64,000 nt of DNA from Polystyrenella longa (GTDB lineage Bacteria; Planctomycetota; Planctomycetia; Planctomycetales; Planctomycetaceae), in the NCBI RefSeq assembly GCF_007750395.1, contig NZ_CP036281.1:3743001-3807000 (forward strand), written 5' to 3'. Positions 50,017 to 61,527 of this stretch are shown one piece after another. The number at the start of each line of letters is the position of its first letter. Within the stretch, counting starts at the first letter, position 1. The notes under the pieces are model-generated. The model ran no database searches. It saw nothing but the letters and a program-made list of their open reading frames with translations, and had not been told where the DNA came from. Made by a program: the position numbers and the translations under genes.

Positions 50017-50056
50017 GCCGCTGTAGCTCAGTTGGTAGAGCGACGCACTCGTAATG
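50017..50056 (+). repeat. attL: 40-bp tRNA-Thr 5' half remnant
   Basis: Identical to bases 60993-61032 in the complete tRNA-Thr. The repeat stops after the anticodon loop (GTAATG); the rest of the tRNA is missing here. This is a duplicated integration core. Confidence 0.95.
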
Positions 50057-50166
50057 AAGAGAAGCGATTTTCAGAAAACGCTTTAAACCCCTTTATTTAC
50101 AGTGTGAAACGCTTGTCACGCCCCCACTGAAAAGACGCCAAAAGAGGCCGTTTTTACCCCCTTGCT

Positions 50167-50181
50167 GGTGTCAGTGACACC
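50167..50181. promoter_or_regulatory. GGTGTCA dyad near left end (putative arm site)
   Basis: GGTGTCA-G-TGACACC, perfect dyad, 110 bases inside the left attachment repeat. The same 7-mer is present three times at the right end (60911-60936). Matches the expected layout of integrase arm-type or excisionase sites. Confidence 0.55.
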
Positions 50182-50215
50182 CGGAAATAATGACGCATTT
50201 TGTATGCGTTGCATG

Positions 50216-50248
50216 AAAAAAAGCCCGGTCAGGAATCCCCAACCGGGC
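50216..50248 (-). terminator. Terminator of the leftmost island gene
   Basis: GCCCGGT (50223-50229) and ACCGGGC (50242-50248) with a run of A before it, which gives a T-run for minus-strand transcripts. Confidence 0.75.
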
Positions 50249-50267
50249 CGAATTCATCATAATCGCA

Positions 50268-50990
50268 TCAGATCGCCTGTACGACGTTGGCTTCAGTTTC
50301 CGAGTGTTGGTTCAGGCTATTGAACTTATCGGCGAACTGGTGGGCCTCACCTTTAGAAATGTGGGCCTGAAGAACATCGCCCGCTGTCGTGATGACATTG
50401 AAGAGAGGTTTCCAGGCTGTGCGTTTTGACCTCTGCTCCAGGTAGTATTTCACATAGTCAGGACGGATCGGGCAGGCTGCAATAGCCCACGTTTTCGTTG
50501 CCTTACCCGTTTTAAGGTTTCCGATCACACTATTAATATGACCCAGTGCCTTCTTTCGATCCTCACGTGAATAACCTCCTCGCAAGCCTGTCGGGGGCAT
50601 ATCGTATTCATCAATCGGGCTCCAGCCGTTTGGAACTTGAATCCTCAACGTGGAATACATCTTCTTACGAGGCACACACACGTACCAAACATAAACGGTA
50701 TCGCTGTCGATTCGTGCCTTCATAGTTGCCCGATTCAGTGCCGCTGTGATTTCGGCAGTTACGGAATATTCCAGAGGTGGAATGCATCGAGGTGATGCTG
50801 AATGTGACGTTTGAGACTGCCAATCTCGGGGCACCCGACTGACATAATAGAACGTTTCGAGCAGAACCGGCGCCGGATACTTAATCGGAGCCGTTTTGTC
50901 CGGCGCATTGGCAACGTTGCCAGGGGAAGCGGGGTCGGTCAATCGACTTGAGGCATGACCATTAAGCGAGGTTTGGGGAATCGTAGTCAT
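50268..50990 (-). CDS. Hypothetical island protein
   Basis: A 240-residue protein starting at ATG at 50990 (MTTIPQTSLNG). An in-frame ATG at 51047 is not used here because a folded DNA/RNA element covers it. Segments VWYVCVPRKKMYSTLRIQVP and KALGHINSVIGNLKTGKATKTWAIAACPIRPDYVKYYLEQRSKR are basic and suggest nucleic-acid binding; no family recognised. It lies at the far end of the element from the integrase. Confidence 0.6.
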   Translation of the reverse strand: MTTIPQTSLNGHASSRLTDPASPGNVANAPDKTAPIKYPAPVLLETFYYVSRVPRDWQSQTSHSASPRCIPPLEYSVTAEITAALNRATMKARIDSDTVYVWYVCVPRKKMYSTLRIQVPNGWSPIDEYDMPPTGLRGGYSREDRKKALGHINSVIGNLKTGKATKTWAIAACPIRPDYVKYYLEQRSKRTAWKPLFNVITTAGDVLQAHISKGEAHQFADKFNSLNQHSETEANVVQAI

Positions 50991-51362
50991 TGGGATGACT
51001 CCTTCCGATGCACGCTGCGAACAGCGCACAAAAAAGAACCCGCACATGCATTGGCGTTCTCAGGCGGTGTTGAGCCGCCTTGGGGGCATTGCTGCTACCC
51101 CACACCCGCGCATGTGCGGATTCTTGCTTTCAACTTTGTTTTTGAGATCAACATGTCTTTCGACTTTGAGAGAGTGGGATTATGCCGCTCTGGTTGTAGG
51201 GTTGTCAAGACTGCACAGCCGAAAACCAGAGTTGATGACCTTCCACTTCACAGTAATTGTTGTATTATCTGGTATGGTAATTTGTGCAGTTAGCAAATCC
51301 CAGTTATCATCTAAAGAGCTGATTGAAAACGATGTATTGTACTCTGAGTAAGCACTGGCTAT
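50991..51362. other. Folded non-coding region of the island
   Basis: 372 bases between divergent genes. It contains the three-stem element at 51040-51119 and an additional GCTG/CAGC hairpin with a 4-base loop at 51014-51025. Confidence 0.5.
51040..51119. other. Three-stem (clover-like) inverted-repeat element
   Basis: Outer 10-bp perfect arms: CCGCACATGC (51040-51049) and GCATGTGCGG (51110-51119). Inside are two hairpins: AGGCGG/CCGCCT (51062-51067, 51075-51080) and TGGGG/CCCCA (51081-51085, 51098-51102). It could be an RNA leader of the 50268 gene or a DNA structure used in replication or packaging. Confidence 0.5.
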
Positions 51363-52061
51363 ATGAAATTTGAAATCATTGATGCGATTAACTTATTGGT
51401 ACCTGGTTTAATAGCAATGTGGATCTTTTATGGTCTCACTCCGCACCCTAAACCACCACACGCAGAGCAAGTCATGCAGGCGCTTATTTTTACATTACTC
51501 GCTCAACTCTTCATGATCCCCGTGCGGGGTATATTTTATTTATGTGGATTGGTCTCGACTTTCTCCGAGTGGCCAGATAGCGGCGAATCATTACTTGCAG
51601 CCTTTGGTGGGTTCTCATTAGGGCTTCTACTTTCGGCTTGCGCAAACAATGACTATCCGCATAGTCTTTTTCGTAGAAAAACCCTCACATGGAGAGAAAA
51701 GGGTGAGAACTCTTCAGCTCCTTATTGGACACAAAAAAATTCATATCCACACGAATGGCACGCTGTGTTTGCCAAGGACTTTGGGTATGCAACTCTTCAT
51801 CTAGCAGACGAACGAATGCTTCACGGATGGATTAAACAGTATCCCGACGATCCTTTTAACGGTTTTTTCTATATTACGAATTTAAGTTGGATTAAATCCG
51901 ATGGCTCAGAATCAATACTGAAAGGCACTCGCGGGATGCTGGTTCCAGCAAAAGAAGTTGTTTTACTTGAGCTTTTCGAAGATCCAACTTCTGCAGCAAC
52001 AGAGGATAGTGACGATGCAAATGATGAATCAATAAACACCTCTCCCAATAAAATCACTTAA
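51363..52061 (+). CDS. DUF6338-type membrane protein (probable island cargo)
   Basis: A 232-residue protein on the opposite strand to the phage genes. The start AINLLVPGLIAMWIFYGLTPHPKPPHAEQVMQALIFTLLAQ, with helices at about 10-25, 38-66 and 75-95, fits the DUF6338 family; the rest (WTQKNSYPHEWHAVF, GFFYITNLSWIKSDG, TRGMLVPAKEVVLLEL) is its cytoplasmic domain. Family function is unknown. Composition is more AT-rich than its neighbours. A small gene with its own Shine-Dalgarno follows 34 bases later. Confidence 0.75.
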   Translation: MKFEIIDAINLLVPGLIAMWIFYGLTPHPKPPHAEQVMQALIFTLLAQLFMIPVRGIFYLCGLVSTFSEWPDSGESLLAAFGGFSLGLLLSACANNDYPHSLFRRKTLTWREKGENSSAPYWTQKNSYPHEWHAVFAKDFGYATLHLADERMLHGWIKQYPDDPFNGFFYITNLSWIKSDGSESILKGTRGMLVPAKEVVLLELFEDPTSAATEDSDDANDESINTSPNKIT

Positions 52062-52095
52062 TTAGCAGTTCTCTAAAACTTTAAAGGAGTATTCA

Positions 52096-52248
52096 GTGCC
52101 ACCTGAGAAACCAATCAAAGTAACCCACGTAATCCGACCAGATGATCCCGGGACTAAAAAGGGTGGGGTGAATCCTCGAGCTCCTATTCCCAGAGAGGAA
52201 GGATCTAGGCAGGTACCCCCCCCTCCTCAAAAACCGAAGGATAAATAA
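52096..52248 (+). CDS. Small proline-rich protein after the DUF6338-type gene
   Basis: A 50-residue protein starting at GTG with AAAGGAG 7 bases upstream (short, so easily missed). It is basic and proline-rich (PPEKPIKVTHVIRPDDPG, VPPPPQKPKDK) with no cysteines. Tight spacing to the DUF6338-type gene suggests a two-gene unit. Function unknown. Confidence 0.6.
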   Translation: MPPEKPIKVTHVIRPDDPGTKKGGVNPRAPIPREEGSRQVPPPPQKPKDK

Positions 52249-52263
52249 CCAGTTTTGTAAACC

Positions 52264-52296
52264 CCCCGTCCAGGCGATATGAAAACCCGGACGGGG
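52264..52296 (+). terminator. Hairpin between convergent cargo and capsid genes
   Basis: CCCCGTCC (52264-52271) and GGACGGGG (52289-52296). No U-tract, so a Rho-assisted or mRNA-end hairpin, usable from both sides. Confidence 0.5.
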
Positions 52297-52351
52297 AAGT
52301 GTGACCCAGCAGACGAGGAATAGAGCGTCTACCGGGGAACTACAAGAATCG

Positions 52352-54352
52352 TTATGCGGCCGCCCCTTTGGATTTCACGCCGCCGCGGGGATCACCCATG
52401 GCAACGCCGAAATCGAAGTAGCTTCGCATTTGCATTCCCAGCGTATCGAAGCTGGTGTCTGCTGTTTCAATGAACGGTGACTTGCGACCTCCCAGAAATG
52501 CCACTTCCATGACCGCGACGTCATTGCCATTCGTAAGCAGGTACCAGGCGGAAGCACTGGCGCCGCTCAAGTTCTGACTGTTCAGCCAGGGAGTCGCTAC
52601 TGCTTTGTAGGCTCCGGCGTGTGGGTTGCCTGATGGCGTGGGAGTGTTGGCCGTCGGATTAATCTCAACCGTCGTGTCACGGACAATCTGGCGGGCTGTC
52701 GTCTTCAATGTCGACGGTACCAGCAAGATTTCAGGGTTGATCAAAATCGGATCGCCGTTTTCATCGACTTGATCAGTGAAGTATTGATCGGCCTCAGTCA
52801 GGCTGTCGATCGAGAGCACAGAATCAGCCCCGTCGAAATAGTTGTTGTTGCCCGCCGCGAAGAAGTTACTCGGGTTGCTCAACAGCAGCGTGTAAACTTC
52901 TTTCTCCAATTTGATCGCCGCCATGCGGCCCATGATCGCAGGGAGTTGAGATAGGGCTGAAAGGTCGTCATTGATCATCATCTCGCGTGTGATCGAAATG
53001 ATAGCTCCGGATGTTTCCAACTTCGAAGTGTATTCCTGCTCTTGCAAGCTCACGTGTTTCAGCTCACCCGACGGGGCGATTTGTGAAAACTCCCCTTTAC
53101 CAGTCAGCCGATAACGAGTGTGCTGTTTGAAGTCGCTGTTCGACTCGACTCTGCAGAAGTGCTGCCAGGTCGTATTCACCGCATTGTAGGCCGACAACAT
53201 AGATTTGTTGGCGACGTTCGAGACGATACCAGGCAGGGAGACCGTCGAGAAGTTCGCTTGCAGCGATTGATTCGCAGAGAATGCCGCCTTGATTGTGTCG
53301 ACGGTGATTCGATTTCCAGAGGGGTTGTGTCGGCCTGCTGCATTGAGAACGGAAATCAGAACGTCATGGAGTCCAACGTTTTGATATTTGGACGATAACG
53401 CCGCCTCAATGGTCCGTTCGTCGTAATGCTGGCCGGCTTGTTCTTCTGTCAGTCCGCAACTGAAACACAATGCCGCTTCCAGAATCTGCCCTTGAGTAGT
53501 GTGGTTGCTACTTCCACCGCCAACGCCAGCCGGTGCGGTTGGTCGACCAGCTCGAAGGACCTCCAGTTCCGTTTTCTGAACATCCCAGCCCTCGCCAATC
53601 GCCTTGGCCTGAATCTTGGGGTATTCCCCGTTACAGGCTTCGATGACGCCAGCAATGCGGGCACGTTCATTCTCAACAGTACGTTCGTCAGCTTCGGTGA
53701 TATTGTTCCCGCTGGCGTTCAACGTCGTCACAGGTGCTGTAACGTTTTTCTCTTGAGTCTGGTTCGTAGTGTCGCCACTTTCGGTCGTTGTAGATTTACC
53801 CGACATGTATATTTCTCCTGAGTGAAAGTTAGCCGCGATGCGAACCAGGGTCTCGGGATCGGCTCCGATGGTCACAATCGAAATCTCATTGAGTTTCGAC
53901 TTACGTGCAACCATGAAGGGATGATCGGCCTTTATCGCTTTGCCGTTTACGTAGATAGTTTGATTAACAGGGACGCGCTCAATCTCTTGAACCACAGTCC
54001 CCACAGAACATTGAAATTGAACTCCGCTTTTGTGCAGTCCGATCACTTCGGATGCTTTAGCAGAGGCAGAAGAAAGAATCCCGGTTGCCCAGACTTGGAA
54101 GTCACGAACAATCGCGTGACCGTAACCGACCGTTGAACTCAGGGTGTTTTCATGGTCGACCAGAAAAGGAATCTGGTCGGATATGGTGAGCCCGTTCAGG
54201 TCGATGATGACGGGGGTTTCCCATCCAGCAACGCGAAGAAAGCCACCCGTATAAGCGAGCAGGTCGATTTTGACATCGCCGTTTTGCTTCGCTTCCAGGA
54301 CGGTCTCAGTCGCCGCTGTAATCATCATCTGTTGTTCGGGCATGGTTACCAT
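52352..54352 (-). CDS. Prohead protease-major capsid fusion protein
   Basis: A 666-residue protein. The ATG at 54352 overlaps the previous stop (TAATG), so it is coupled. Residues about 25-180 are a prohead-protease-like domain with histidine H67 (FLVDHENT) and serine S116 (FQCSVGTV), as in S78/Mu-type maturation proteases. Residues about 195-330 are a disordered/helical linker, probably a scaffold removed on maturation. Residues 340-666 resemble Mu gpT-type major capsid proteins (ISITREMMINDDLSALSQLPAIMGRMAA). In one protein they could build a procapsid alone. It is the only structural phage gene seen. Confidence 0.85.
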   Translation of the reverse strand: MVTMPEQQMMITAATETVLEAKQNGDVKIDLLAYTGGFLRVAGWETPVIIDLNGLTISDQIPFLVDHENTLSSTVGYGHAIVRDFQVWATGILSSASAKASEVIGLHKSGVQFQCSVGTVVQEIERVPVNQTIYVNGKAIKADHPFMVARKSKLNEISIVTIGADPETLVRIAANFHSGEIYMSGKSTTTESGDTTNQTQEKNVTAPVTTLNASGNNITEADERTVENERARIAGVIEACNGEYPKIQAKAIGEGWDVQKTELEVLRAGRPTAPAGVGGGSSNHTTQGQILEAALCFSCGLTEEQAGQHYDERTIEAALSSKYQNVGLHDVLISVLNAAGRHNPSGNRITVDTIKAAFSANQSLQANFSTVSLPGIVSNVANKSMLSAYNAVNTTWQHFCRVESNSDFKQHTRYRLTGKGEFSQIAPSGELKHVSLQEQEYTSKLETSGAIISITREMMINDDLSALSQLPAIMGRMAAIKLEKEVYTLLLSNPSNFFAAGNNNYFDGADSVLSIDSLTEADQYFTDQVDENGDPILINPEILLVPSTLKTTARQIVRDTTVEINPTANTPTPSGNPHAGAYKAVATPWLNSQNLSGASASAWYLLTNGNDVAVMEVAFLGGRKSPFIETADTSFDTLGMQMRSYFDFGVAMGDPRGGVKSKGAAA

Positions 54353-54864
54353 TAGATTTCGACTCCCATCGTTTCCAGCTTGACCAGAACGCATTCGTGC
54401 AATAACTGGCGAACAGCCGGGTTCTCATCCCGTTTGAGCATCAACAGCAGGTCTTCGAGAGTGTAGTTCCCGGTCGCCTGCAACATCTCTTCTTTGGCTT
54501 CGACAGAGTGAGAGAGTTCGGTCTGAATTCGATAGGCCGTTTTTTTGGCGTCATGCAATTTGTTCGGGGCTGGCTTCCACCGCTCCCGGTTTTCAAGTGC
54601 CGCGAGTAGGCAACAAATATCGCAAGCCGACCAGCACATTCGCCCGCCTTGATTCTGAGGGGGCTGCATGTATCCCTTGTCGATGAATTCATTGATCGTC
54701 TCGACAGAGCAGATATAGCCCGACGCCGAACAAAGTTCGATCACTTCCCGATTGGAAGCGGGATAGTGTGGATGAACGTCGGCAATCTTCCAACCAGGAG
54801 AGAGGCGTTCCCGGGCTTCCTGCTCGATGACTTGTCTTGGATCAGTGGTTTCAGTTGTACTCAT
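54352..54864 (-). CDS. Hypothetical island protein with HTH-like segment
   Basis: A 170-residue protein. Residues about 40-80 (SGYICSVETINEFIDKGYMQPP, then GGRMCWSACDICCLLAAL) look like a MerR-type winged helix; residues 90-165 are helical. It overlaps the capsid gene by its stop, so the two are made together; it could be a capsid accessory protein, an adaptor, or a terminase-small-like DNA-binding protein. No firm family. Confidence 0.6.
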   Translation of the reverse strand: MSTTETTDPRQVIEQEARERLSPGWKIADVHPHYPASNREVIELCSASGYICSVETINEFIDKGYMQPPQNQGGRMCWSACDICCLLAALENRERWKPAPNKLHDAKKTAYRIQTELSHSVEAKEEMLQATGNYTLEDLLLMLKRDENPAVRQLLHECVLVKLETMGVEI

Positions 54865-54911
54865 GGGGTTTGTCCTTTCGTTTCAGAAAATATAACGATC
54901 AATTCAGCAGA

Positions 54912-55205
54912 TCAGGCGGGTTGATTGTCGCCTTCAACCGCTTTATTAAAGTTACTGCTATATCTAGCACTTTCTTTATGACCGTTGAGGAATGCCGCTC
55001 CGATGCTGGGGTAACCCCCACCCACTAGGATCTCTTTAGTGAGGTACTTATTGCCGCAATTCCGACATGTTCGCTCCCTCTCGGTGATACCAGGTTTGGA
55101 CTTTGTTCGGGTAATCCCGGACACCCCCAGCCCACAAACAGGGCACGTTGGACCCTTGTTTTCTAGTGTTTCCGTAGCCTCTGAGGCTGCTTGCTGCTCG
55201 CTCAT
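54912..55205 (-). CDS. Zinc-ribbon protein, Ogr/Delta-like
   Basis: A 97-residue protein. CPVCG (residues 21-25) and CRNCG (47-51) with ITRTKSKPGITERERTC between them resemble the Ogr/Delta late-gene activators of P2/P4 phages (CPxC, RTSR, ER, CxxxxC). P4 uses Delta to switch on late genes of itself and of its helper. If correct, this protein activates the capsid gene just downstream. The C-terminal 40 residues are basic and unknown. Assignment is tentative. Confidence 0.55.
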   Translation of the reverse strand: MSEQQAASEATETLENKGPTCPVCGLGVSGITRTKSKPGITERERTCRNCGNKYLTKEILVGGGYPSIGAAFLNGHKESARYSSNFNKAVEGDNQPA

Positions 55206-55376
55206 TTTCTCGCTACTCCGTTTCCCGTATTGAGGGGAAATAAAGTCTGTCTATTAATGTGATAGTTCCCGCCGCTGTGCTCCGTCGCCGACCTCCGGGA
55301 AGGACCCGCGACCCTCTCGCCGTCGAGCTGGCCGCCCATCGACCAGGGCAGAATGCAACAGGCTGATTTCTGATTT

Positions 55377-55479
55377 GGAACAGTTGGAACAGTTGGAACC
55401 TTTTTGGGGTATAAGAGCGCCTTGTATACGCGAAACGTTGTTTATGGGTAAAAAAGGTTCCAACCGTTCCAATCGTTCC
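55377..55479. repeat. Iteron-like inverted repeat, candidate replication origin
   Basis: Left arm 55377-55405 has three direct units of GGAACNGTT then CTTTTT; right arm 55450-55479 is the reverse complement of the same pattern (GGTTCCAACCGTTCC...). They are separated by 44 bases. The array sits 6 bases past the stop of the primase-helicase gene. Repeats of this kind next to a P4-type primase are typical replication-origin iterons. Confidence 0.65.
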
Positions 55480-55484
55480 ATTTC

Positions 55485-57782
55485 TTATCTCAACGCGATT
55501 GATTGATACCACCAACCATTACTCCTTGTCTTTTGGAACCCCATTTCCGCAAGTCGTTGTCCAAACTTCTTTTGTGTAGAAGTTTGTTGCCCTGATTCTT
55601 CACACCACTCTTCAAAAGCCTTAAAAAGTTGTCCTGCTTTGATCTTGTATGCAATTGCTCCGGTTAAACATTTGTCATCAATGAACTGACCTAAAACGTC
55701 TTCATCTGATCGATATTCGTTAGTTGCAGAGTCAATTAGTTGAGGTATTTGTAAGCCACCATTGACCCAATCAACGCATCCAAGAACAGCCCAGGCGAGT
55801 ATCCCTTCAGACAAAGCAAGGAGCTTTTCCTTGAGTTTCTTGTCCTGTTGGTCTGGGGAGAATGTTTGACTAAAGGGGATGAGAAGTAGTCGCCGCCATA
55901 TCCCGTTATCTGTTCCCGCTACGACTGGCTTGTGATTGGTGCACAGAATCAATTTATGAGTCGGTAAGAATTCCCAGAAATCCTCTCTCATTTTCCTTGC
56001 CCGAATCTTGTCACCACCCGTCAATTCTTTGACCAGAGCTTCATTCAGCTTTCGGCTTTCCTCTGTTTCCGTACAAACAACCAATCGCTTTCCAAATAGG
56101 TCAGCGAGTTCTGTTGGGTGTCTGTCGCCATTACTGGCAACCAGCATTGTTTGCGGTGCTTTTGACGCATAGTCAGAGCCGATTACGCTCATTAAGACTT
56201 CAAGCACTGTGCTTTTTCCATTGGCACCCTTTCCCCAGAAAATCGGAAGGACGTGTTCCACCGTTGATCCTGTGAGGGTGTAACCGAAGAGACGTTGAAC
56301 GAAGTCGGCCAGTCCTTCATCAGGGAAGATTTGTTCTAAGAACTGATCCCACAAATAGGATTCCGATTCGGGATTAAAATTAGTTGGACAAAGCTTGGTG
56401 ATGTAATCTTCTTTTCGATGCTCCCTAAGTTTCCCTGTCCGTAGATCGACCGTTCCATTTGGGCAATTCAACAGCCATTCGTTTTGATCTAAATCGGTCG
56501 GCATTATGGGGACTTCAGATTCCGCCAACTTCAACAAAGCTGTAATGCCTGAATTCTTCGCGGAGTCCCTAGCAAACTTGATTGAGTCTTCATCAGGACA
56601 ATCTGCGACTTCATGCCACAGTTGATCGATCATCTCTTTAGCAAGTTGACGAATTGCACCCGAGCGATCGATTTCCCATCGCACTTGATTCCAGATCAAC
56701 CACTTTTTCCAAGGGTGGCAGTAAAGGCATCTATCACCGAATAGCCTCAAGAAACGCCGTGAGTTTGCTAACTCGGTGCGACCTTTGTCCGAAGCAACTG
56801 GACAATCGGGCAGAATGGAATCGGATTTCGAATCGAGAAAGTGAATATCTGCCTCAGGTGGCAACGTTGCCACAGCTTCTGGCTTCCAGCATTCGCCAGC
56901 CTTGACTATTTCCATCAGTCTTTCAGGCGTGTTCTCTTCAGACTCAAACCAATCAGTGACGTCGCCCTTATGTCCAACTTCTGTCAAATGAATGACCTTC
57001 ACGCTCGCTGCTTTCGGGAAAACATTCGCGGCAACATTTTCTCCATGTTTCAATCCGTCTGTATCTTGATCGGGAAGAATGACAACATGCCGATTCTTGA
57101 AATAGCGGGCGTAGTCCTTCCGCCATTGCCCCGCGCCTTGAGCGTTTGTCGTGGCAACGAATCCAGCATTCGTCAACGTGTCAACGTCCTTCTCCCCCTC
57201 AGCGATAAATACAGGCTGATCAATTGAAGAATTGAGTAGTTCAGGAAGACGATAGGGAGGTTTTCTGATTCCCTTCGTTCCCCAAATCCAGCCCCCTTTT
57301 CCATCTGGTCTTCGCTGCTTGAATTCTTTGTTGTTGCCAGGTGGCTTGTCGACTAAGCGATAGCGGAGCACCTCGAACAACAGAATGCCTTGATCGTCGT
57401 GATAGGGGTATGTTGCCTCCTGAACACGACTCGACAAGGAGCTTCCTTGCTTGATTGGGTGAGTAACTCCAGTAACCTGTGCATAATGCCGTTGGGCGTC
57501 TTTCCAATCGCTAAATCTGCCCAGCCTGACGGACAACTCGAAAAAGTCACACCCTGAATCCGCTACATTATATTCGTGATAGCCTCCCGACTTGACATTA
57601 AACGAGGCTGATGGATTCTGGTCTTCTCGACTTACCGCGTGACATTGAATCCAACCTTCCGAATTGGGGCGCGACTTCTCCGGTATTCTCAAGCCGAGAG
57701 ATATCGCTTCCTCATGTAGATTGAGGCGATTTAAAATGTCGGCTCTAAATGCTTTCCAATCAATCTTGGTTGCTGTTTTCAT
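55485..57782 (-). CDS. P4-type primase-helicase
   Basis: A 765-residue fusion. Residues 1-150 have a primase-like N-terminus with cysteines; TOPRIM at about 190-245 (VFIAEGEKDVDTL and DQDTDG); D5_N/SF3 helicase from about 430: DQNEWLLNCPNG, Walker A GKGANGKST (517-525), KRLVVCTETEESRKLNE (Walker B-like) and sensor CTNHKPVVAGTDNGIWRRLLLIPF. Such proteins start and drive replication of satellite phages. It is translationally coupled with the gene upstream (ATGA at 57779-57782) and lies next to an iteron-like repeat. Confidence 0.92.
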   Translation of the reverse strand: MKTATKIDWKAFRADILNRLNLHEEAISLGLRIPEKSRPNSEGWIQCHAVSREDQNPSASFNVKSGGYHEYNVADSGCDFFELSVRLGRFSDWKDAQRHYAQVTGVTHPIKQGSSLSSRVQEATYPYHDDQGILLFEVLRYRLVDKPPGNNKEFKQRRPDGKGGWIWGTKGIRKPPYRLPELLNSSIDQPVFIAEGEKDVDTLTNAGFVATTNAQGAGQWRKDYARYFKNRHVVILPDQDTDGLKHGENVAANVFPKAASVKVIHLTEVGHKGDVTDWFESEENTPERLMEIVKAGECWKPEAVATLPPEADIHFLDSKSDSILPDCPVASDKGRTELANSRRFLRLFGDRCLYCHPWKKWLIWNQVRWEIDRSGAIRQLAKEMIDQLWHEVADCPDEDSIKFARDSAKNSGITALLKLAESEVPIMPTDLDQNEWLLNCPNGTVDLRTGKLREHRKEDYITKLCPTNFNPESESYLWDQFLEQIFPDEGLADFVQRLFGYTLTGSTVEHVLPIFWGKGANGKSTVLEVLMSVIGSDYASKAPQTMLVASNGDRHPTELADLFGKRLVVCTETEESRKLNEALVKELTGGDKIRARKMREDFWEFLPTHKLILCTNHKPVVAGTDNGIWRRLLLIPFSQTFSPDQQDKKLKEKLLALSEGILAWAVLGCVDWVNGGLQIPQLIDSATNEYRSDEDVLGQFIDDKCLTGAIAYKIKAGQLFKAFEEWCEESGQQTSTQKKFGQRLAEMGFQKTRSNGWWYQSIALR

Positions 57783-58201
57783 CGCTGACCTCCCTTCCGC
57801 CGAAGTTGGGGAGTCCAGGGATCAATTTCGTGTTTGATTCGAGGATCAGGAGCAACTGCTATCGTGAAATCTTTGAAGGGGCAGAACTCAGGGGGACTAT
57901 CCCCGGCAAACTTTTCGATTCTGCCAAGGTGATGTGATCCGCGGATCTCTACGTGTCCGAGGCCGGTGTTTTCAAGAGGCCAGCCGTGCCGATGCTTTCG
58001 CGGCCAGCGTCCGTTTTCTTTACAGAATAGGCACTTGTAGACGATTTGAGCTGTGAGCCGTTCCCAGCCTGCTCGCTCGCAATCAGTAACCCAATCACCC
58101 GCTACAACTTCTCCGAGGAAAAGTGGATAGATATTTCCATCCAGGTTGTACCGTCCAACCTGCATAAAATAGCTTGAATATGTTTTTGATCGTGATATCA
58201 T
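57779..58201 (-). CDS. Hypothetical small island protein
   Basis: A 140-residue protein overlapping the primase start by 4 bases. It has cysteines in CLFCKENGR (CxxC) and FCPF, with histidine-rich stretches (RKHRHGW, RGSHHLGR), so a zinc-binding fold is possible. First ATG 58201; 58165 is also possible (MQVGRYNLDG). No named family. Tight coupling to primase suggests a role in replication. Confidence 0.55.
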   Translation of the reverse strand: MISRSKTYSSYFMQVGRYNLDGNIYPLFLGEVVAGDWVTDCERAGWERLTAQIVYKCLFCKENGRWPRKHRHGWPLENTGLGHVEIRGSHHLGRIEKFAGDSPPEFCPFKDFTIAVAPDPRIKHEIDPWTPQLRRKGGQR

Positions 58202-58239
58202 TGGTCTGCCATTACCGAATGGACAAAAGAAATTTCATG

Positions 58240-58276
58240 AGAAACCCTGACAGACGCGATTCCTGTCGGGGTTTCT
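58240..58276 (-). terminator. Hairpin after the excisionase-like gene
   Basis: A 14-bp stem with one G-T wobble (58240-58253 with 58263-58276), loop of 9 bases, 44 bases past the excisionase-like stop. On the minus strand it is followed by a T-rich stretch. Confidence 0.6.
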
Positions 58277-58320
58277 TTGCGTAATGAGAGAGGTGCAAAA
58301 GCATTGCACCAACAAAGCCC

Positions 58321-58590
58321 CTAAAAGAACTCGATCACATTCGGATCGGATCGCCGCACACGGCGTTGAGGCTTAATAGGGGTCTGGACCTTGCGACGTT
58401 GCTCGAATGCGAGTACGTCCGTCATCAGAACCTTAAATCGCGGGCGTCCGACTCCTCGGTTGGTGCTGATATCCATCGCCGGAAGTTCTCCCGAACGAAT
58501 CCAGCCGAGAACCTTAAAGGGCTTCACTCCCCAACGTTGAGCCAGTTGAGGGGGCGTCATTACTTCTCGCTGTATTTTGCTTGCTGTCAC
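58321..58590 (-). CDS. Excisionase-like helix-turn-helix protein
   Basis: An 89-residue protein. The GTG at 58590 has AAGGAG 9 bases upstream and is preferred over ATG at 58635. MTPPQLAQRWGVKPFKVLGWIRSGELPAMDISTNRGVGRPRFKVL is a MerR/Xis/AlpA-type winged helix: a recognition helix, then a wing that ends at a basic strand. Such proteins bind DNA at att sites and aid excision, or activate integrase. The C-terminus is basic (RRKVQTPIKPQRRVRR). Confidence 0.8.
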   Translation of the reverse strand: MTASKIQREVMTPPQLAQRWGVKPFKVLGWIRSGELPAMDISTNRGVGRPRFKVLMTDVLAFEQRRKVQTPIKPQRRVRRSDPNVIEFF

Positions 58591-58763
58591 TGCCTGATCT
58601 CCTTGTAAGAGCCGTTTGTGAATTAATACGGTCATTTACAAATAGGGAGATGTTGTGCAGAGGTTGTGCGTTTTGATTTGCACATGTCATTGAATAGAGG
58701 AATAAAACCGCGAAATGGTTGTGCGTAAAAAAGTGCGATCCAATAACGCACAAATAATAACGA

Positions 58764-59639
58764 TTATTCGTCTTCAAACATTCGCGAAGTATTATCATCA
58801 AACACGACATCAATCTGACCTTGATCGTGTCGGATGATTTTATCTTGATCAGATGCTAGAGCCTTTTCCATTCGATTCCGCAGATCCTGCCATTTATTCG
58901 ACCTTCCCAACGTGGTATGGCTTACGCCTAGTTCAATGGCTATCTGGTTGTCCGTCATTCCGGGATTATCTCGTAGCAACAATATTGCTTCTGGAAGCCA
59001 CCACCCTCTTTTATTCTTTCTTTTGGGGTTCTCTTCTTTGATAGCGGTATCGAGCGGAGATTGAGTTTTATCCGCATGCGGAGTTGGAATCTGTGGTGGT
59101 GAGGGCAATACTATGTCGAAGTGTTTTTCTGTTCGAATACATTCCTGTTTGGCCTCGATTCCCGTTCGAGAAATAGCCTTTTCATCATAATCACCCAGAC
59201 ACCTGAAGAGCTCTTCACAACAATCTAGCCATTCATCTTCGGGACAGTCATCGGTTGACGACGAGGGGAACTGCCGTAAGTCATTTTCAAGCTCTGCCAT
59301 GACCAGGAATAGAAATTCGGTTGCGCTCGGTATGCTGTGATATTCTCGAAATGATCGATCAGGGTTGAGTTGTTCGACATTCGCATCCTCGATTGCAGGC
59401 AACATGTCGTAAAAATGTTGAGCGTGAACTCTCTCCAGAATAGCCGAAATATTTTGCCACTCGTACCCGATATCGCGTCGAAGGTTTTTCCATTTGTGGC
59501 TGTTCTTGTAGCTGACTTCCGGCTCGAAATACTGAGTGACATTTTTCCGTTGGAGGGCGTTTTTAAGTGATTTAATCATGTTGTCTGAAGCAACTTCACA
59601 CCAATTCCTTAACGCCTGAATTGTTTCAATTTCGTCCAC
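58764..59639 (-). CDS. Hypothetical island protein with C-terminal HTH
   Basis: A 291-residue protein. The N-terminal 200 residues have no recognised fold and are acidic, with a helical pattern. Residues about 210-270 (GWWLPEAILLLRDNPGMTDNQIAIELGVSHTTLGRSNKWQDLRNRME) form a helix-turn-helix DNA-binding domain. It lies between integrase and excisionase-like genes, where satellite repressors often are. It may control lysis-lysogeny type decisions; unproven. Confidence 0.6.
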   Translation of the reverse strand: MDEIETIQALRNWCEVASDNMIKSLKNALQRKNVTQYFEPEVSYKNSHKWKNLRRDIGYEWQNISAILERVHAQHFYDMLPAIEDANVEQLNPDRSFREYHSIPSATEFLFLVMAELENDLRQFPSSSTDDCPEDEWLDCCEELFRCLGDYDEKAISRTGIEAKQECIRTEKHFDIVLPSPPQIPTPHADKTQSPLDTAIKEENPKRKNKRGWWLPEAILLLRDNPGMTDNQIAIELGVSHTTLGRSNKWQDLRNRMEKALASDQDKIIRHDQGQIDVVFDDNTSRMFEDE

Positions 59640-59677
59640 TTCATCAACTCCCTACTGTTGCCCCTAAAAAAAGAAGA

Positions 59678-59728
59678 AGCGGGAAACCGATTTAGGGAAT
59701 CGGCGTTCAGGAGCTACCCTATCCCGCT
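59678..59728 (-). terminator. Nested terminator of the integrase gene
   Basis: Outer stem AGCGGGA (59678-59684)/TCCCGCT (59722-59728), inner stem CCGATT (59687-59692)/AATCGG (59698-59703). For minus-strand transcripts a T-rich tract follows. 15 bases past the integrase stop. Confidence 0.7.
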
Positions 59729-59742
59729 CGAATTGGATTGTA

Positions 59743-60897
59743 CTACTTCGCTTTAGGGAATAACCATTTCCGGACGTGGTTTGATACAGCAATCAAACGA
59801 TCATCTCCGATTCGCTCGCGGTATCTCGCCGACATTGAATTATCTACGTGGCCCATGATGTGATTTACTGCAACCTGATCGAGGGATTCCCCGGCAATGG
59901 TTTCAAATGTGTGACGCAAGGCATAGAAGTTCAGGCCAGGCCGTTTCAGATCGTGTTTTCTCAAGAGCTTTCCAAACTTCAATCCGAGCGAATCAGACCA
60001 GGCTTTTTTTTCACCCTGACTGATCTTCACCCAGCGTTCGCCCCGCCTCGTGAGAAAACAGAGATCCGCATCAGCAGGATGCTTCGGTTCTGGGCGAACT
60101 TCAATCGCATCCCTCATCGCTTGCATGGTTTCCGGCCAAAGTGGGCAACGTCGAGGAATGGCCGTCTTCGGTCGCGGGTAATCAATCATCTTCGCTCGCC
60201 AGTCGATAGCCGATTGTGGAAGGCTGGAAAGGTCACTCTGACCGAATCCACAATTCAGCCCGACCAGAATCATTGCTTTCAGGTCTGGCCCTGCATCATC
60301 AAGTAGAAGCTTGATTTCTTTTGCCTCAAGCATTCGAGCAGTTGATTGATTTCGTGACTCCCTCATTTTCTTACGGGAAGGCTTGGCGAACCCTGAACCA
60401 TATCGAACAGGCTTATCAATCATGCCTGAATCATAACCGTACTTGAAAACTGACCGTATTCGCCCAATGGTGTCACCCAATGAGACCGGATTTCGTGTAG
60501 TAGCCAATTCGGTACGGAGCTGTTGGAAATCATCCTGAATCAGATCCTGAACTATTCGCTCCTTCCCGAAGTAATCCACAAGCAGTGTACATACTCGCAG
60601 GCAGTCTGAAAACGTTCGCTCGGTAATATCTGCTGACACCAGCAGACACCTCTTCCAGGTGAGAAAAGCGTTGCATAGATCACGAACTGATAAACCGTCT
60701 GGGCGCTTCGGCCTTGGCGTTCTTCCGGCTTGTAGTTCATCCCTCTCTTCGATATATTTCTCGAGTGCCCCTTGGGGATCACGCCAGGGACCGAAATAAT
60801 GCAGTTTCCCCCGTATTTTCTTCGCCCAACGCTTGGTTGCGTGCGGAAATAACGGGAATTCAGGATACGGCTTTTCCGGTTTCTCTATTTTTGACAT
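59743..60897 (-). CDS. int: Tyrosine recombinase (integrase) of the island
   Basis: A 384-residue tyrosine recombinase. Catalytic part: R328 and H329 in FYALRHTFET, H350 in IMGHVDNS, nucleophile Y359 in ARYRERI, and the beta-hairpin lysine K244 in PRPKTAIPRR. The usual first arginine (GxRxxE) is not seen: the segment reads GLNCGFGQSDL (213-223), and the H of HxxR is Y (YALR). This looks like the planctomycete branch. N-terminal SAM-like core-binding domain 68-185. It lies 95 bases from tRNA-Thr, reading away from it. Confidence 0.9.
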   Translation of the reverse strand: MSKIEKPEKPYPEFPLFPHATKRWAKKIRGKLHYFGPWRDPQGALEKYIEERDELQAGRTPRPKRPDGLSVRDLCNAFLTWKRCLLVSADITERTFSDCLRVCTLLVDYFGKERIVQDLIQDDFQQLRTELATTRNPVSLGDTIGRIRSVFKYGYDSGMIDKPVRYGSGFAKPSRKKMRESRNQSTARMLEAKEIKLLLDDAGPDLKAMILVGLNCGFGQSDLSSLPQSAIDWRAKMIDYPRPKTAIPRRCPLWPETMQAMRDAIEVRPEPKHPADADLCFLTRRGERWVKISQGEKKAWSDSLGLKFGKLLRKHDLKRPGLNFYALRHTFETIAGESLDQVAVNHIMGHVDNSMSARYRERIGDDRLIAVSNHVRKWLFPKAK

Positions 60898-60910
60898 TGT
60901 GCTTTTTTCG

Positions 60911-60936
60911 GGTGTCAGGTGTCAGTTGAGGTGTCA
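60911..60936. promoter_or_regulatory. GGTGTCA triple direct repeat (putative arm sites)
   Basis: GGTGTCA at 60911-60917, 60918-60924 and 60930-60936, in the leader of the integrase gene. The same word forms the dyad at 50167-50181 at the other end. Candidate integrase arm sites or operator of the integrase. Confidence 0.55.
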
Positions 60937-60992
60937 CCTAGCATAAACCTCGAATCACAAAAGTCAAGAAAACACTACTATAACAGCCTTAA

Positions 60993-61032
60993 GCCGCTGT
61001 AGCTCAGTTGGTAGAGCGACGCACTCGTAATG
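60993..61032 (+). repeat. attR: 40-bp core direct repeat
   Basis: Second copy of the island boundary repeat; perfect match to 50017-50056. Confidence 0.95.
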
Positions 61033-61065
61033 CGTAGGTCGTGAGTTCGACTCTCATCGGCGGCT
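60993..61065 (+). tRNA. tRNA-Thr (anticodon CGT), island attachment site attR
   Basis: A complete 73-base cloverleaf: acceptor GCCGCTG/CGGCGGC with one G-U, anticodon arm around CTCGTAA (CGT), T-arm GTGAG TTCGACT CTCAT, discriminator T. CCA not encoded. Its first 40 bases are duplicated at 50017, so its 5' half and its present promoter region come with the island. TATAAC at 60979-60984 is a possible -10 element. Confidence 0.95.
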
Positions 61066-61092
61066 CTTGATAACCTCTTTACTGTCAATAAC

Positions 61093-61527
61093 TTATGACG
61101 GTGAAGAGGTTTCTTTTTTGGTCACATTTGGGCTAGTGTTACCTAAATAGTTACCTTCGACTACTGAGTACAGAATTTCAGCCGTCGCTTCGGCTTCCTG
61201 CTCAACATAGTAACGAAGCGTGGTATCAATACTCTCATGCCGCATCAGCTGCTGAAGTACAGGCGGCATCACTCGAGTTGACCATCTAGTACCGAAAGCC
61301 CGGCGAAAATCATGCGCACTGGCGAACTTGATTTTGCCTTCTTTTCTGGAAAGGATCACCTGAGCCGCTTTTCCCATTTTGCTGATCAGCTTGCCTGCGT
61401 GGGGGCTAGTCATTCTCGGAGTATCCACCGATTCTTTCTCCGCCAGCTTAAAAACAAATCCGGTTCGATCATCTTCGAGAACAGATAGTAATTGAAAAGC
61501 AAATTCGGGGGCGATGGGAAGAACCCG
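61093..61527 (-). pseudogene. Tyrosine recombinase C-terminal remnant
   Basis: About 145 residues of a second integrase. The frame has the catalytic motifs (HDFRRAFG with R, RHESIDTT with H, LRYYVEQEA with Y) and upstream RVLPIAPEFAFQLLSVLEDDRTG. It loses its frame at an in-frame stop inside the inserted element at 61528-62040; the N-terminal core-binding and arm domains are missing. It lies on the 3' side of the same tRNA-Thr, reading toward it, which suggests an older integration event. Confidence 0.8.

What the first reader, a model, noticed from the sequence alone, without database searches (positions are those of the whole stretch)
50017..61032. 11-kb satellite-like island in tRNA-Thr with its own integration, replication and capsid modules
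The boundaries are exact (40-bp direct repeat, tRNA intact on one side). The gene set is integrase, excisionase-like HTH, regulators, primase-helicase, iteron-like repeat, Ogr/Delta-like regulator, protease-capsid. Portal, terminase, tail and lysis genes are not seen. That combination is unlike a normal prophage and unlike classic P4 or SaPI, which use helper capsids. A satellite with its own capsid protein in a planctomycete would be new to me.
Basis: partly seen in the sequence, partly recalled or inferred. Interest (0 to 1): 0.85.

Follow-up and report, generated by a model that had tools for sequence, protein, structure and literature searches.

The report
Phage satellite carrying its own capsid
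An 11-kb mobile element in a bacterial tRNA gene carries its own virus-shell gene but no DNA-packaging motor or tail, and similar elements recur in other genomes, some of them lodged inside the packaging genes of the phages they probably exploit.

Summary
An exact 40-bp repeat (only two full copies in the genome) bounds an 11-kb element in tRNA-Thr(CGT). It encodes a tyrosine integrase, HTH proteins, a P4-type primase-helicase beside paired inverted iterons, a zinc ribbon, a protein with a MerR-like DNA-binding fold and a prohead protease/HK97-fold capsid fusion. No portal, terminase or tail gene was found inside it or beside it.
It is unlikely to be a decayed prophage. Eight elements in seven other genomes are bounded in the same way by repeats in tRNA genes (9.2-11.0 kb) and carry this capsid type without portal or terminase. 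Most satellite capsids form one supported clade; the window's lies in a second small group. Relatives' capsid genes are under purifying selection (the window's own could not be tested).
Unexpectedly, serine-recombinase relatives sit inside phage genes: in the large-terminase gene (IMG/VR contigs) and in a portal gene (one chromosome). Joining the flanks restores the reading frame in the three cases that gave both ends cleanly.
Best reading: a satellite with its own shell and replication that borrows portal, motor and tail from a lambda-like helper phage, between SaPIbov5-Ccm and capsid-forming PICIs. Particle formation, helper identity and packaging signal are inferred, not shown.

The parts
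50017..50056 (+). attL: 40-bp direct repeat, 5' half of tRNA-Thr
60993..61032 (+). attR: second copy, inside the intact tRNA
60993..61066 (+). tRNA-Thr(CGT), intact; its 5' half and upstream region now belong to the element side
59743..60897 (-). tyrosine integrase, 384 aa, next to attR
   Evidence: PF00589 7.8e-11, phrog_1 1e-30
58764..59639 (-). 291-aa HTH protein, probable regulator
   Evidence: PF13384 0.0012, below cut-off; weak phrog_7344 (small terminase) 0.038
58321..58635 (-). 104-aa HTH_17 protein, excisionase/AlpA-like
   Evidence: PF12728 3.1e-06; phrog_66 1.7e-04
57779..58201 (-). 140-aa protein, no match
55485..57782 (-). P4-type primase-helicase, 765 aa
   Evidence: D5_N 1.1e-36; TIGR01613 306 bits, over cut-off
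55375..55480 (.). paired inverted iteron arrays (3 + 3 copies around ~45 nt), probable replication origin
   Evidence: similar layout in L107 and L110, not in four other regions scanned
54912..55205 (-). 97-aa zinc ribbon at head of capsid cassette
54352..54864 (-). 170-aa protein ('X170'), MerR-type winged helix plus helical tail; overlaps the annotated capsid start
   Evidence: AF2 pLDDT 90; VIA Z 6.2 to HiNmlR and CadR; family found
52352..54394 (-). prohead protease / HK97-fold major capsid fusion, 680 aa
   Evidence: PF25209 3.7e-46, phrog_4523 1.2e-77; Foldseek to HK97 head E 2.4e-09
51363..52061 (+). DUF6338 protein, 232 aa, accessory gene
   Evidence: PF19865 8.2e-07, over cut-off
50268..51047 (-). 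259-aa protein, no match, accessory

Best explanation
The island is an integrated phage satellite. Shown by sequence: an element with exact attachment repeats in tRNA-Thr, its own P4-type primase-helicase beside an iteron array, and a capsid cassette of zinc ribbon, MerR-fold protein and protease-capsid fusion, with no portal, terminase or tail found. Inferred: when a lambda-like siphophage (GpA-type terminase, PF05136 portal) grows in the cell, the satellite excises, replicates from the iterons and makes its own small shell, which its own protease matures. The shell grows on the helper's portal, the helper's terminase fills it and the helper's tail is attached, so transfer is helper-dependent while the shell size favours the 11-kb genome. 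The MerR-fold protein may steer packaging (a TerS- or Rpp-like role) or regulate the cassette. The genes left of the capsid are accessory cargo.
For: Boundaries. Other bounded elements: 9 of 13 loci (window plus 8, in seven other genomes) show an exact 22-48-bp repeat pairing a tRNA with a point 9.2-11.0 kb away; one search checks identity; none of the nine holds a portal or terminase match. Capsid without portal/terminase in 13 of 41 loci. X170 in 16 of 397 class genomes, the window's included, 19 places; in the X170 loci with a capsid match no portal or terminase match appears. Capsid tree of 73 rows: main satellite clade of 25 rows (24 labelled satellite), SH-aLRT 97; 99 for its 20 rows in a reduced set. 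Satellite relatives' capsids: dN/dS 0.07, 0.09, 0.08, 0.21 in four pairs, two more pairs identical; two phage pairs for comparison 0.29 and 0.13. Cassette of 3.1-3.3 kb, 94-99.8% identical, shared by two loci of one genome while the rest aligns only in pieces under 100 bases (three genomes). Zinc-ribbon-like ORF within 1.8 kb upstream of the capsid in 16 of 28 satellite loci and 2 of 23 phage loci, one of the two being L033 (a pattern match, a few doubtful by eye). Iteron arrays of like layout between replication gene and cassette in 3 of 7 regions scanned (window, L107, L110). Relatives lodged in phage terminase/portal genes tie the family to this phage type.
Against: No particle, excision or transfer evidence. 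The window genome has no second copy of this capsid beyond a weak short match and no terminase of this subtype at E 1e-40; its one GpA/PF05136 prophage has a different, lambda-E-like capsid by eye and shares nothing with the island but tRNA-like sequence and chance-level pieces (E 0.36). No packaging site was found. X170 is not detectably related to the phages' putative TerS (hhalign P 0.043). Scans of IMG/VR with the window's capsid gave 15 loci, all with a portal match, and with its X170 none, so the window's own lineage has no virus-fraction support. The window's capsid is nearer by path to phage capsids than to the main satellite clade, and a separate capture is not shown either: one clade for both groups is not rejected (AU p 0.165). 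The window's own capsid gene had no close relative for a dN/dS test.
Confidence: 0.77

Rival explanations
1. Decayed prophage: a lambda-like prophage lost its portal, terminase and tail and kept integrase, primase and capsid by chance.
For: The capsid and integrase are of phage families; the window's capsid is nearest by path to phage capsids (44% identity to L032); a few loci of the set do look like broken prophages (L040, L141).
Against: Exact attachment repeats, main ORFs open, similar reduced sets in other genomes, a satellite capsid clade, the zinc ribbon/X170 cassette rare or absent beside portal-bearing capsids, dN/dS about 0.07-0.21 in relatives.
Confidence: 0.06
2. Interference element: the capsid protein does not package the satellite but poisons or reshapes helper shells (as Ccm does by occupying pentamers), so the DNA travels in mosaic or helper-made heads, or the capsid acts mainly as defence.
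For: No portal or terminase of its own; SaPIbov5 Ccm, a capsid-protein homologue, replaces helper protein only at pentamers (passages of PMC8569155).
Against: A full protease domain with invariant H81, S130 and E170 (18 of 18 aligned rows, satellite and phage) is more than a pentamer replacer needs; the capsid is far from its nearest phage relatives seen (44%), which makes co-assembly less likely.
Confidence: 0.15
3. Encapsulin-like island: the protein makes a compartment or DNA-free shell for the host and transfer is by other means.
For: HK97 fold without a portal; an encapsulin chain is among the structural matches (rank 38).
Against: Maturation protease fused to the capsid, mobile-element context, replication module, and relatives inside phage packaging genes.
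Confidence: 0.02

Closest known systems
SaPIbov5 and its Ccm protein (cos-type SaPI)
   Same: Satellite that encodes a homologue of a phage capsid protein and relies on helper portal and terminase (PMC8569155, passages; lack of own portal/TerL partly recalled).
   Different: Ccm co-assembles with helper capsid protein; here the capsid gene carries its own maturation protease, and the replication module and cassette differ.
Capsid-forming PICIs (cf-PICI)
   Same: Own capsid protein and protease, small integrated element, no full tail module.
   Different: cf-PICIs also encode portal, head-tail connectors, TerS, TerL and HNH (PMC10690885, passages); here portal and TerL are absent.
P4-like satellites
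   Same: P4-family primase-helicase, tRNA integration, iteron-type putative origin (P4 layout recalled).
   Different: P4 has no capsid gene (recalled); it resizes helper heads with Sid (PMC12409344, PMC10690885, passages).
Mulch/Flayer satellite viruses of Streptomyces
   Same: Satellites with their own capsid genes and few or no tail genes.
   Different: Those encode portal and terminase and lack obvious replication genes (PMC10690885, passages); here it is the reverse.

Membership tests
capsid-forming PICI | own major capsid protein and head protease | tested here: met
capsid-forming PICI | own portal protein | tested here: not met
   no portal match; no unassigned ORF of 300 aa or more
capsid-forming PICI | own large terminase subunit | tested here: not met
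capsid-forming PICI | own small terminase subunit | tested here: inconclusive
   X170 has a MerR-type winged helix but no profile support to the phages' putative TerS; the 291-aa HTH protein has a weak small-terminase hit
SaPIbov5-type PICI (Ccm) | capsid-protein homologue without own portal or TerL | tested here: met
SaPIbov5-type PICI (Ccm) | sequence homology to Ccm and PICI regulators (names such as Stl and Pri-Rep recalled) | not tested
   no SaPI sequence was compared
P4-like satellite | P4-family primase-helicase | tested here: met
   TIGR01613 over cut-off
P4-like satellite | Delta/Ogr-type activator | tested here: inconclusive
   zinc ribbon; PF04606 E 0.068 (window) and 0.002 (L036), both below cut-off
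P4-like satellite | no own capsid gene; Sid resizes the helper shell | tested here: not met
   own capsid gene; Sid itself not searched
complete prophage | portal, terminase, tail | tested here: not met
phage satellite in general | mobilisation by a helper phage | not testable with these tools
   no experiment or read data

The most novel reading that the evidence does not exclude
A satellite family, recurrent across one class of bacteria, that carries a self-maturing capsid but no motor. It splits into a tRNA branch (this window) and a branch that uses a large serine recombinase to sit inside its helper's packaging genes, in TerL or the portal gene. That branch would switch the helper's motor off while integrated and restore it on excision, just when the satellite's own shells need it. 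Some members also carry a tape-measure gene and so may alter the tail as well.
Probability: 0.5. Interest if true: 0.9.

Novelty: new variant of a known kind. Interest (0 to 1): 0.79.

Why it matters
It would add an intermediate between satellites that only reshape a helper's shell and those that build everything but the tail. If the host is a planctomycete, one full-text search ('planctomycet' with 'phage satellite') found no paper and a second ('planctomycet', 'prophage', 'satellite', 'capsid') listed five, none on this by title and abstract start. It gives a testable case for how capsid genes pass between phages and satellites. The relatives lodged in phage TerL and portal genes suggest a direct, reversible control of a phage's packaging motor by its parasite; the two literature searches made for that listed one paper each, neither on this by title and abstract start (not read).

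Tried and rejected
Decayed prophage: disfavoured (see rivals). X170 as a homologue of the phages' putative TerS (family f23, 17 strong matches, next to TerL where checked): hhalign P 0.043, probability 0.7%, not supported. Shared packaging-like DNA between the island and the one GpA/PF05136 prophage of its genome: nothing but tRNA-like sequence and chance-level pieces. Second PF05136 hit of the genome (424645): neighbours look like host genes by eye, not pursued. Empty tRNA-Thr site: the left-flank protein was found in 1 of 5 genomes tried, and the 2.2-kb locus held lacks the tRNA motif, so no empty site is shown. Named hosts: the one genome-contig scan gave two distant relatives, in other groups of bacteria by title. 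Defence genes: PADLOC gave nothing for the window's two accessory genes. IMG/VR scans with L036, L107 and L062 capsids gave portal-bearing phages (3 and 1 loci) or nothing. Lambda Nu1 and Rpp were not in the VIA list shown, which excludes nothing.

Corrections made on the way: and in the length printed for WIN a stored sequence had been replaced by the oriented element; one search repeats the count with the right sequence. In one search the automatic 'common core' was wrong; one search uses cores read from the junctions. Rows labelled 'phage' include L063/L141, L040 and L033, where the terminase or portal piece is a broken gene near satellite-type genes. Before the tree I left out seven loci (overlaps and near-copies) and all capsid matches under 900 bases; before the tree 18 more rows (duplicates, short, long-branched or contig-edge rows). 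The greedy ORF caller picks wrong frames in G+C-rich loci, so classification rests on six-frame profile hits. One search lists capsid matches in 99 of 397 genomes, its list cut; I fetched only part of these places, so the share of satellites among them is not known.
Full report
What is there. The window genome (G000, one contig, 6,125,480 bases; window at 3743001-3807000) carries an element bounded by an exact 40-bp repeat at 50017-50056 and 60993-61032, the only full copies in the genome. The right copy is the 5' half of an intact tRNA-Thr(CGT), 60993-61066. The element lies on the 5' side of the tRNA, so the tRNA's present upstream region is the element's. From attR leftwards, mostly on the minus strand: Tyr integrase, 291-aa HTH protein, HTH_17 protein, 140-aa unknown, P4-type primase-helicase, paired inverted iterons, zinc ribbon, X170, protease-capsid fusion, then DUF6338 (plus strand) and a 259-aa unknown. 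Portal, large terminase and tail families do not match; the 291-aa protein has one weak small-terminase hit (E 0.038). No unassigned ORF reaches 300 aa. The flanks are host-type genes.

Capsid gene. Residues 380-675 match Phage_capsid_4 (3.7e-46), residues 76-678 the protease/head family phrog_4523 (1.2e-77); the NCBIfam fusion model NF045541 scores 305 bits, below its cut-off of 525. The AF2 model (mean pLDDT 76) matches HK97-fold heads (HK97 itself at Foldseek E 2.4e-09, TM 0.54 by target). H81, S130 and E170 are invariant in 18 aligned members; that these are the catalytic residues is recall plus inference. It is the only full copy in the genome; the other match is short and weak.

Relatives. 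Of 149 genomes, the window's included, 74 have some match to the capsid protein, many only a short weak one. I read 40 neighbourhoods of the stronger matches plus the window by six-frame profiles: 28 of 41 have a portal and/or GpA-type terminase match and 13 do not; some of the 13 are at contig edges. A profile of X170 found 16 of 397 class genomes. Of 12 X170 regions newly fetched, 10 show a capsid match beside X170, none shows a portal or terminase, and two show no capsid (L116, L117). Nine elements including the window are bounded by exact repeats in a tRNA gene: Thr (window, L108), Gln (L036, L062), Val (L065, L110, L112), Glu (L107), His (L123); 9.2-11.0 kb; window and L108 use the tRNA's 5' half, the others the 3' part. 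Four of the 13 loci tested gave no clear pair (L056, L060, L124 none; L109 ambiguous). Replication genes vary: P4-type primase (window, L107), DnaB (L108), AAA_25 (L062, L123), Prim-Pol with AAA_25 (L110).

Capsid tree and selection. In 73 rows the main satellite clade has 25 rows, 24 without a nearby portal/terminase and one (L141) beside a truncated terminase gene, SH-aLRT 97. The window lies in a second group with L112, L068, L045 and L033 (99). L033 looked like a phage, but its portal homology stops near residue 291 and is followed by a zinc ribbon, this capsid and, at the contig end, a serine recombinase, so it too may be a satellite lodged in a prophage. In a reduced set of 55 rows both groups are single branches at 99, and one common clade is not rejected (AU p 0.165), so separate captures are possible but not shown. 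dN/dS in satellite relatives is 0.07-0.21 in four pairs, against 0.13 and 0.29 in two phage pairs; two further satellite pairs are identical. In three genomes two loci share only a 3.1-3.3-kb cassette around the capsid gene at 94-99.8% identity, with nothing else over 100 bases aligned: the cassette appears to move as a unit.

X170. The AF2 model (pLDDT 90) shows a MerR-type winged helix at residues about 33-98: GlnR at Foldseek probability 0.94-0.96 but E about 0.6-0.8, behind unrelated helical proteins by E-value; VIA Z 6.2 to HiNmlR and CadR with rmsd 1.8 and 1.3 over 57 and 54 residues. Z under 8 can be a common arrangement. DNA binding is likely; a TerS- or Rpp-like role is a guess from position and fold class.

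Iterons. Paired inverted arrays lie between replication gene and cassette in the window, L107 and L110; of the other four regions scanned, L036 has repeats of another layout and L108, L062 and L054 nothing alike.

Relatives inside phage packaging genes. In genome G163 a 10.4-kb element with satellite-clade capsid, AAA protein and serine recombinase sits in the portal gene of a prophage; joining the flanks at the shared TTCAA restores the portal reading. The scan of IMG/VR with a capsid of the same subclade gave 8 loci: in L163 and L165 a 10.3-10.4-kb element of this kind lies within TerL at residue 315, and joining at the short core restores ...LVV(I/L)DDPQTDES..., a motif I take from recall to be Walker B; L166 shows the same but my joined reading was in frame only to the right of the core; L167 has the right part only; L162 and L164 show no TerL; L168 resembles the window (primase, capsid, tape measure, Tyr integrase) but its capsid starts near the contig end; L169 is a portal-bearing phage. 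One-sided signs of TerL splitting at this site: G024 and G028. In G316 TerL is split there by about 1 kb within one open frame, which looks like an intein. The window's own element is of the tRNA type.

Helper. 97 of 397 class genomes have this terminase subtype (I took the 397 to be one sample). I chose by hand 27 of them with satellite-type loci, some at contig edges, leaving out contig-edge loci of G376 and G235 and the broken locus of G028; 14 have the terminase against 83 of the other 370 (Fisher p 0.0017); without four genomes whose terminase may be the neighbour of a lodged satellite, 10 of 23 (p 0.039). The window genome is among those without it. PMC11389934 (passages) notes that a cf-PICI's own strain held 17 prophages, none of which mobilised it detectably, so absence of a resident helper is not decisive.

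Known systems. Passages read: PMC8569155 (Ccm, homologue of the phage capsid protein, takes the pentamers), PMC10690885 (gene list of cf-PICIs; Mulch/Flayer satellites), PMC12409344 (capsid redirection in SaPIs), PMC11389934 (review), PMC13345588 (mention of cf-PICIs). Other papers were seen only in listings. The element works like a satellite with its own shell; by gene content it is not a cf-PICI, and its capsid gene sets it apart from P4.

Shown and inferred. Shown: boundaries, gene set, recurrence in other genomes, selection on relatives' capsids, cassette sharing, insertion of relatives in phage packaging genes. Inferred: excision, replication from the iterons, shell assembly on a helper's portal, filling by a helper's terminase, role of X170 and zinc ribbon.

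Noticed in passing
L163:3019-13336, L165:6247-16654, also L166, L167: Satellite-type elements (own capsid, AAA protein, serine recombinase) lie inside a phage TerL gene at residue 315; joining the flanks restores the frame in L163 and L165.
   Followed up: partly
L125 / L126 (G163:C1 about 4835100-4845550): The same kind of element, 10.4 kb, splits the portal gene of a chromosomal prophage at a five-base core; joining the flanks restores the portal reading.
   Followed up: yes
L062 with L123, L060 with L124, L108 with L109: Two loci in one genome share only a 3.1-3.3-kb capsid cassette at 94-99.8% identity.
   Followed up: partly
L036:11148-13610, L112:5653-7515, L056:11717-13669, L168:5866-8019: Tape-measure genes near capsids with no portal or terminase in view; in L036 and L112 inside the bounded element; L168 starts near its contig end. 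Why a satellite would carry one is unexplained.
   Followed up: partly
61093-61428: C-terminal fragment of a second tyrosine recombinase just downstream of the tRNA, outside the repeat (profile hit 61171-61527; no Pfam or NCBIfam hit); perhaps a relic of an earlier element.
   Followed up: partly
G000:C1 about 5842700-5852900 (L146): Prophage-like region of the window genome with GpA terminase and PF05136 portal but a different capsid by eye; a possible but unproven helper.
   Followed up: partly
L065:12975-13994: Abi_alpha protein (PF14337 5.7e-17) in the accessory region of a bounded satellite.
   Followed up: no
G316:C369:7773-11102: TerL interrupted near residue 320 by about 1 kb within one open frame, probably an intein at the same site.
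   Followed up: no
L116:9744-10442, L117:3763-4461: X170-like proteins with no capsid match nearby.
   Followed up: no
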